Positions 33,668 to 33,808 of a stretch of DNA of 64,000 nt are shown piece after piece. This stretch comes from Ilyonectria destructans (taxonomy: Eukaryota > Ascomycota > Sordariomycetes > Hypocreales > Nectriaceae). The position numbers were made by a program, and so were the translations under genes. The stretch covers positions 1,116,001 to 1,180,000 of the forward strand of contig JAHEWK010000016.1 of the NCBI GenBank assembly GCA_020740775.1, written 5' to 3'. A model generated the notes under the pieces. It saw only the letters and a list, made by a program, of their open reading frames with translations. It was not told where the DNA came from and did not search any database. Each line of letters opens with the position of its first letter. The stretch's first letter is position 1.

Positions 33668-33674
33668 GCGGGTT

Positions 33675-33686
33675 TAGCTCAGTTGG
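33675..33686 (+). promoter_or_regulatory. Pol III A box
   Basis: TAGCTCAGTTGG fits the internal A-box consensus and lies wholly upstream of the insert, so the insert does not break it. Confidence 0.75.
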
Positions 33687-33687
33687 G

Positions 33688-33741
33688 GTAAGTTGCAAAA
33701 CTTCTAAAAACTCCAGCACATCAAGTCTAACAATCTCATAG
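33688..33741 (+). other. spliceosomal-type intron inside the tRNA-Phe D-loop
   Basis: 54 nt beginning GTAAGT and ending CATAG, with a CTAAC branch-point match at 33727-33731, about 11 nt before the 3' end. These are the same signals and length range (about 42-132 nt) as protein-gene introns in this window. It contains no T4 run, so Pol III would not be expected to stop in it. Removal restores the D-loop exactly. Confidence 0.8.
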
Positions 33742-33771
33742 AGAGCGTCAGACTGAAGATCTGAAGGTCAT

Positions 33772-33782
33772 GTGTTCGATCC
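33772..33782 (+). promoter_or_regulatory. Pol III B box
   Basis: GTGTTCGATCC matches the B-box consensus (GWTCRANNC core). The insert widens the A-to-B spacing by 54 nt, still within the range tolerated by intron-containing tRNA genes. Confidence 0.75.
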
Positions 33783-33802
33783 ACATAAACCGCAAACGAT
33801 TC

Positions 33803-33808
33803 TTTTTT
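33803..33808 (+). terminator. Pol III T6 terminator
   Basis: Six T residues begin nine bases after the discriminator base of the tRNA, the expected position for RNA polymerase III termination. Confidence 0.75.

What the first reader, a model, noticed from the sequence alone, without database searches (positions are those of the whole stretch)
33668..33794. tRNA-Phe gene interrupted in the D-loop by a spliceosome-type intron
Seen: a complete tRNA-Phe(GAA) body is split between nucleotides 20 and 21 by 54 nt that start GTAAGT, contain CTAAC 11 nt before the end and finish ATAG, exactly like protein-gene introns nearby. Exact removal restores the D-loop AGTTGGGA and a 73-nt tRNA. The anticodon loop has no insert. 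Known: eukaryotic nuclear tRNA introns sit one base 3' of the anticodon and are cut by the SEN endonuclease, and tRNA-Phe genes of yeast and Neurospora carry such an intron. Inference: either a Pol III transcript is processed by the spliceosome, or a Pol II transcript feeds the tRNA pool, or an unusual enzyme removes it. This could be a recent intron gain in a tRNA gene, coupled with loss of the canonical intron.
Basis: partly seen in the sequence, partly recalled or inferred. Interest (0 to 1): 0.93.

Follow-up and report, generated by a model that had tools for sequence, protein, structure and literature searches.

The report
Spliceosome-type intron inside tRNA-Phe genes
In this mould genome most of the genes found for the phenylalanine transfer RNA are cut in two by a short intron that looks like those of protein genes, which suggests that the messenger-RNA splicing machine helps to make a basic part of the protein-synthesis apparatus.

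Summary
Window 33668-33794 is a tRNA-Phe(GAA) gene split after nucleotide 20 by 54 nt (33688-33741), GTAAGT...CTAAC...TAG. Of 8 tRNA-Phe genes found in the genome, 7 carry a 54-55 nt insert at this site and one is intact. All 7 inserts have GTANGT, CTAAC and YAG, while the window insert's interior has drifted to near the shuffled level (47-58% identity); exons are identical in 6 of 7. Leaving the insert out gives tRNA-Phe in 7 of 7; with it, 0 of 7. No bulge-helix-bulge fits. SEN-type genes and anticodon-loop introns of other tRNAs exist. A U6 gene of the same genome has a GT-AG insert too. Host: a nectriaceous mould near Ilyonectria. Best reading: a Pol III pre-tRNA-Phe spliced by the major spliceosome; an old intron, not a recent gain. 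No RNA data were at hand, so splicing is inferred. The ten paper searches listed no report of a spliceosomal intron in a tRNA gene; U6 and U3 are the nearest precedents.

The parts
33668..33687 (+). tRNA-Phe(GAA) 5' exon, nucleotides 1-20 (acceptor 5' strand, D-stem 5' strand, D-loop to G20)
33675..33686 (+). A box (TAGCTCAGTTGG), internal Pol III promoter element, wholly upstream of the insert
   Evidence: sequence; consensus recalled
33688..33741 (+). 54-nt spliceosome-type intron, GT...AG
   Evidence: same site in 7 of the 8 tRNA-Phe genes found
33688..33693 (+). 5' splice site GTAAGT
   Evidence: GTANGT in 7 of 7 inserts
33727..33731 (+). branch-site motif CTAAC; predicted branch A at 33730, 11 nt from the 3' end
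   Evidence: CTAAC in 7 of 7 inserts, branch A to 3' end 11-13 nt
33739..33741 (+). 3' splice site TAG
   Evidence: YAG in 7 of 7 inserts
33742..33794 (+). tRNA-Phe 3' exon, nucleotides 21-73 (D-stem 3' strand, anticodon arm GAA without insert, T arm, acceptor 3' strand, A73)
33774..33782 (+). B box (GTTCGATCC)
   Evidence: sequence; consensus recalled
33803..33808 (+). T6 run, likely Pol III terminator; a run of 5-7 T starts at +9 or +10 in all 8 copies

Best explanation
The gene is one of seven tRNA-Phe(GAA) genes found here that carry a U2-type (GT-AG) spliceosomal intron of 54-55 nt between nucleotides 20 and 21. Pol III reads the gene from its internal A and B boxes to the T-run. The spliceosome recognises GUANGU, CUAAC and YAG in the precursor, excises the intron as a lariat and joins the exons, restoring the D-loop; end trimming, CCA addition and modification follow (order unknown). 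These seven genes supply most of the cell's tRNA-Phe. Shown: gene anatomy, copy number found, conserved signals, near-complete drift of the window insert's interior, restored tRNA. Inferred: transcription by Pol III, splicing by the spliceosome, lariat, contribution to the tRNA pool.
For: 7 of 8 tRNA-Phe genes found, on five contigs, have the insert at one site. All 7 meet GTRNGT + CTRAC 6-36 nt from the end + YAG. Window copy versus the other six: interior identity 0.47-0.58 against shuffle means of 0.48-0.52, but the signals are kept. Exons identical in 6 of 7; the split class differs from the intact copy by a double change at T-stem pair 49:65 (G-C / A-U). ARAGORN: 7 of 7 spliced, 0 of 7 unspliced are tRNA-Phe(GAA). 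Protein-gene introns placed here have like size and motifs; four Fusarium species: median 57 nt, CTRAY 91%, YAG|R 94% (PMC5677156, passages). A run of 5-7 T starts 9 or 10 nt downstream in 8 of 8. A U6 gene of the same genome has GTAAGC...ACTAACCCCTTCACAG at GAAGAT|TAGCATGG, so splicing of a Pol III RNA is to be expected there. No bulge-helix-bulge: 0-2 of 4 central pairs in 7 of 7, both registers.
Against: No RNA reads were available; nothing here shows excision. The one intact gene could in principle feed the pool alone. The computed cloverleaf of the spliced body is less stable than that of the intact copy (-16.3, for C34 -18.9, against -21.3 kcal/mol), and the spliced minimum-energy fold is not the cloverleaf. 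Insert GC (0.35-0.44) is below that of the protein introns compared (mean 0.51). The U6 insert's donor is GTAAGC and does not meet GTRNGT. The inserts are related to each other, so the seven are not independent witnesses; the main contrast is the window copy against the rest, and one of its six comparisons (C3b) is reached by only 4% of shuffles. Gene conversion could keep exons alike without selection. TTTT is absent from the 17 protein introns too, so its absence from the split genes is no special sign of Pol III.
Confidence: 0.8

Rival explanations
1. The split copies are dead or non-translational (pseudogenes or mere Pol III/TFIIIC sites); the single intact gene makes all tRNA-Phe.
For: One intact copy exists. 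A review holds that D- and T-arm inserts in eukaryotic tRNA genes, mostly found in one of many synonymous copies, are supposed to be pseudogenes (PMC4090602, section 5). The spliced split genes fold less well in silico than the intact one.
Against: Here it is the other way round, 7 of the 8 copies found. Exons identical in 6 of 7, double change kept in a T-stem pair, boxes and T-runs in place, splice signals kept while the rest of the window insert drifted.
Confidence: 0.1
2. The insert is removed by the tRNA splicing endonuclease (SEN) or another cleavage-ligation enzyme, as for D-arm introns of red algae and nucleomorphs.
For: Two SEN-type (tRNA_int_endo) matches are present and some other tRNAs have anticodon-loop introns; non-canonical tRNA introns of C. 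merolae and nucleomorphs are known (PMC4090602, section 5).
Against: No bulge-helix-bulge in either register in 7 of 7; SEN would not explain why GTANGT, CTAAC and YAG are the parts that stay.
Confidence: 0.05
3. A Pol II transcript across the locus is spliced and then processed to tRNA; the Pol III precursor is not.
For: Spliceosomes usually work on Pol II RNAs; no ORF of 200 aa or more lies between 32368 and 35021, which leaves room for such a transcript.
Against: A T-run stands 9-10 nt after 8 of 8 genes, the A and B boxes are in place, and the window copy's flanks show no clear likeness to the others that a shared Pol II unit would predict (C3b, C67 and C34 do share upstream stretches). 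A GT-AG insert in U6 makes splicing of a Pol III RNA plausible in this genome.
Confidence: 0.05

Closest known systems
mRNA-type introns of fungal U6 snRNA genes (S. pombe and others)
   Same: GT-AG spliceosomal intron inside a short structured Pol III RNA; such an insert is in a U6 gene of this genome too
   Different: Host RNA is a snRNA of the spliceosome, for which reverse splicing near the catalytic nucleotides has been proposed (PMC10484740, passages); a tRNA is not part of the spliceosome
Spliceosomal introns of fungal U3 snoRNA genes
   Same: Small structured RNA; GTRWGT, RCTRAC, YAG; paralogues with and without intron in one genome (PMC5832005, section 3.2)
   Different: Not a tRNA; the paper calls U3 and U6 the only small structured RNAs known to be often interrupted by an intron (passage)
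Canonical nuclear tRNA introns (SEN, position 37/38)
   Same: Interrupt tRNA genes; present in some other tRNA genes here
   Different: Position and signals differ; none of the eight tRNA-Phe genes found has an insert there
Non-canonical tRNA introns of C. merolae, nucleomorphs and archaea
   Same: D-arm position occurs
   Different: Described with bulge-helix-bulge motifs (C. merolae) or as 3-24 nt inserts (G. theta nucleomorph), not GT-AG with a branch site (PMC4090602, section 5); no such motif here
Spliceosomal introns in nuclear rDNA of ascomycetes
   Same: mRNA-type intron in a structural RNA gene not read by Pol II (one listed in PMC11782384, passages)
   Different: rRNA, not tRNA

Membership tests
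U2-type spliceosomal intron | GT...AG ends with a GTRNGT-like donor | tested here: met
   7 of 7 inserts
U2-type spliceosomal intron | branch motif CTRAC 6-36 nt before YAG | tested here: met
   7 of 7
U2-type spliceosomal intron | size within that of the genome's protein introns | tested here: met
   54-55 nt against 46-87 nt in 17 introns placed by me
U2-type spliceosomal intron | excision as a lariat by the spliceosome | not testable with these tools
   needs RNA
Functional nuclear tRNA gene (Pol III) | cloverleaf with anticodon after removal of the insert | tested here: met
   ARAGORN 7 of 7; one acceptor mismatch at 5:68, also in the intact copy; computed minimum-energy fold of the spliced form is not the cloverleaf
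Functional nuclear tRNA gene (Pol III) | A box, B box and T-run terminator | tested here: met
Functional nuclear tRNA gene (Pol III) | mature tRNA in the cell | not testable with these tools
   needs tRNA-seq
Canonical SEN tRNA intron | insert one base 3' of the anticodon | tested here: not met
   insert is between 20 and 21; anticodon loop uninterrupted
Bulge-helix-bulge tRNA intron | 4-bp central helix between the two cut sites | tested here: not met
   0-2 of 4 pairs in 7 of 7, two registers
Introner-like element | near-identical copies as introns of many genes | tested here: inconclusive
   two insert queries hit only tRNA-Phe genes (4 of 4 places, 1 of 1); diverged copies would be missed by this search

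The most novel reading that the evidence does not exclude
A whole tRNA isoacceptor family depends on the spliceosome: in this fungus (and perhaps its relatives) nearly all tRNA-Phe is made from Pol III precursors with an old GT-AG intron, so that decoding of Phe codons is tied to splicing capacity. This would be a further route of nuclear tRNA splicing, easily overlooked because tRNA finders do not look for such inserts in eukaryotes.
Probability: 0.6. Interest if true: 0.93.

Novelty: new variant of a known kind. Interest (0 to 1): 0.88.

Why it matters
tRNA splicing and pre-mRNA splicing are treated as separate pathways. A tRNA gene family with spliceosomal introns would show the spliceosome at work on Pol III tRNA precursors, would give a natural case to study how introns enter and persist in structural RNA genes, and would mean that fungal tRNA annotation misses genes: ARAGORN with introns allowed found 0 of the 7 unspliced genes, Rfam's tRNA model gave none of them at its cut-off and only a partial 28.2-bit match to one of them below its cut-off of 29, and the tRNAscan-SE 2.0 paper describes its non-canonical intron search for the archaeal mode (PMC8450103, passages).

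Tried and rejected
Considered and rejected: assembly artefact (seven copies on five contigs); chance motif (with the caveat); bulge-helix-bulge intron; recent gain; self-splicing (54-55 nt is too short for group I or II introns; recalled, not tested). An introner family is not supported but not excluded. Absence of TTTT in the inserts was dropped as evidence because 0 of 17 protein introns have it either. The SRP RNA and RNase P RNA matches showed no GTRNGT...CTRAC...YAG candidate.

Led nowhere: pattern scans of viral and prokaryote contigs for the split gene gave 0 hits, which says nothing about fungi. No collection of fungal DNA was on hand, so relatives could not be compared. Whether other isotypes have D-loop inserts stays open: the genome search scored 63 of 2006 tRNA candidates, the tRNA model misses such genes, and I looked at 37 of the 53 tRNA places it listed. 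Paper searches: (all 10 allowed); several showed only part of their hits (25 of 1,439; 10 of 5,358; 20 of 35; 15 of 17). The primary U6 survey (Canzler 2016) is not held. Passages of PMC9518982 and PMC6461891 added nothing on tRNA introns.

Limits: the protein introns came from 18 pairs of peptide anchors that I picked; one pair gave no intron; the script ranked candidates partly by splice motifs, so motif frequencies there are biased upwards. ARAGORN's tRNA-Phe(aaa) at L047 looks to me like a miscalled tRNA-Ser with an anticodon-loop intron and was not counted as Phe. 'Eight tRNA-Phe genes' is what the DNA searches found; diverged copies could be missed. Flank likeness was judged from local alignment scores without a shuffle control. 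In one search the printed split of two tandem copies (C3b, C3m) was wrong because the script matched a neighbouring copy; searches give them correctly.

Full report
What is there. Window 33668-33794 reads as a tRNA-Phe(GAA) gene whose D-loop is interrupted between nucleotides 20 and 21 by 54 nt, GTAAGT...CTAAC...TAG. ARAGORN and Rfam at its cut-off find no tRNA in the window; ARAGORN with introns allowed also finds none at the locus, but calls tRNA-Phe(GAA) when the 54 nt are left out. The window lies in a 71.67 Mb, 74-contig genome. The N-terminal part (501-aa ORF) of the AAA-ATPase gene near the tRNA is 96% identical over 90% of its length to a protein of Ilyonectria sp. MPI-CAGE-AT-0026 (Ilyonectria is in Nectriaceae, Hypocreales), so the host is that genus or a near relative; this rests on one protein and the species was not identified.

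It is a family. A search of the genome with the window gene gave 8 places: 7 split genes (contig C8, three in tandem within 562 bp on C3, one each on C12, C34, C67) and one copy without insert on C12. A second search with the intact gene found the same 8 genes. Inserts are 54 nt (4 genes) or 55 nt (3 genes). Six of 7 split genes have identical 73-nt exons; the C34 copy differs at two bases.

The inserts look like spliceosomal introns. GTANGT, CTAAC with the branch A 11-13 nt from the end, and YAG occur in 7 of 7, and all 7 satisfy GTRNGT + CTRAC + YAG, as does 1 of 127,890 54-mers of the window, namely this one. The loose motif without fixed length is close to chance (17 against a shuffle mean of 11.7, maximum 18), so the argument rests on the exact tRNA fit and on conservation among copies. 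Between the window insert and the other six, the stretch from donor to branch site is 47-58% identical, against shuffle means of 48-52%; one of the six comparisons (C3b, reached by 4% of shuffles) hints at residual likeness. The window copy's flanks give local alignment scores of 8-13 (upstream) and 9-17 (downstream) to the others, about what unrelated pairs give; the two highest (16, 17) are downstream, perhaps from the shared T-run; no shuffle control was run. So in the window copy the signals, and little else, have been kept. The other six inserts are more alike (56-94% in the interior) and share CTAACCTTCACTGRCAG, so they are not independent.

Comparison with protein introns. From 18 anchor pairs in tubulin and actin-family genes of this genome I placed 17 introns, 46-87 nt long; 12 of 17 have CTRAC in range, 13 of 17 YAG, 6 of 17 GTRNGT, 2 of 17 all three. 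The tRNA inserts are thus typical in size and closer to consensus than these. In four Fusarium species the median is 57 nt, CTRAY 91% and YAG|R 94% (PMC5677156, passages read). The insert GC content (0.35-0.44) is lower than that of the 17 introns (mean 0.51).

Signs of function. The A box lies before the insert, the B box after it, and a run of 5-7 T starts 9 or 10 nt after all 8 genes. Against the intact gene the common split gene differs at 49, 57, 65 and 68; 49 and 65 are partners in the T stem and differ together, G-C against A-U. All 8 genes have one acceptor mismatch at 5:68 (G-A or G-G), so that is not a mark of decay in the split ones. Against: computed cloverleaf energies are weaker for spliced split genes (-16.3, C34 -18.9) than for the intact one (-21.3), and their computed minimum is not the cloverleaf.

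Other routes tested. Two SEN-type endonuclease matches are present. I examined 37 of the 53 tRNA places; ARAGORN flagged anticodon-loop introns in six of these loci (Ala-TGC, Arg-TCG, Val-TAC, two Leu, and one that it miscalls Phe-AAA), and two Ile genes have an extra stretch there by my reading, so the ordinary pathway probably exists. The D-loop insert does not fit it: it is at another place and no bulge-helix-bulge forms in either of the two possible registers in any of the 7. Two of the insert sequences were used as queries and were found nowhere but in tRNA-Phe genes.

A precedent in the same genome. One of three U6 matches (C1) is interrupted at GAAGAT|TAGCATGG by GTAAGC...TTTACTAACCCCTTCACAG, with a B-box-like GGGTTCGAACCC inside. 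U6 introns in fungi are known; [quoted passage not shown] Hence the spliceosome of this fungus probably handles at least one other Pol III transcript. Four U3 matches also begin with or just after a CTAAC...CAG acceptor-like stretch, though a full intron with donor was not located; [quoted passage not shown]

Mechanism. Most likely a Pol III precursor is spliced by the major spliceosome and then matures as tRNA-Phe; seven genes would supply the bulk. Transcription, excision, lariat and contribution to the pool are inferred. Because the site is shared and the window insert has drifted so far, the intron is old rather than recently gained; independent gains at one site are less likely but not excluded.

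Known or new. A review of tRNA introns describes, for eukaryotes, canonical introns and the D- and T-arm inserts of nucleomorphs and C. merolae, and supposes that inserts in one of many synonymous copies mark pseudogenes (PMC4090602, section 5 read in full; the stem 'spliceosom' does not occur in its main text). A 2017 paper calls U3 and U6 the only small structured RNAs known to be often interrupted by an intron (PMC5832005, passage). Ten paper searches listed no paper whose title or shown start of abstract reports a spliceosomal intron in a tRNA gene; some lists were cut and the library lacks most subscription papers, so this is not proof of absence. I rate it a new variant of a known kind: a spliceosomal intron in a Pol III RNA, in a class of RNA where I know of none.

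Noticed in passing
G000:C1:6743874-6744043 (-), locus L019: U6 snRNA gene with a 66-nt GT-AG insert at GAAGAT|TAGCATGG that carries a B-box-like GGGTTCGAACCC inside the insert.
   Followed up: partly
G000:C15:490901-491001 and G000:C2:321379-321479, loci L017, L018: Two further U6 matches, identical to each other, without insert and with a different 5' end (GTCCCTAGGGAC) from the split U6; role unknown.
   Followed up: no
loci L101-L104: Four U3 snoRNA matches start at or just after a CTAAC...CAG stretch, as expected if each has a spliceosomal intron near its 5' end; the donor was not located.
   Followed up: partly
L012 and L011 (contigs C3 and C12): Two split tRNA-Phe genes have inserts with 94% alike interiors although their flanks score no higher than unrelated pairs, which suggests gene conversion or copying of the gene alone.
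   Followed up: partly
the 8 tRNA-Phe genes found (L009-L016): Acceptor pair 5:68 is G-A or G-G in every copy, the intact one included.
   Followed up: no
G000:C16, C18, C33, loci L059-L061: Tubulin-like matches with equal or nearly equal scores on three contigs (L059 and L060 read as near-identical divergent beta-tubulin-like genes; L061 not read), perhaps duplicated or accessory segments.
   Followed up: no
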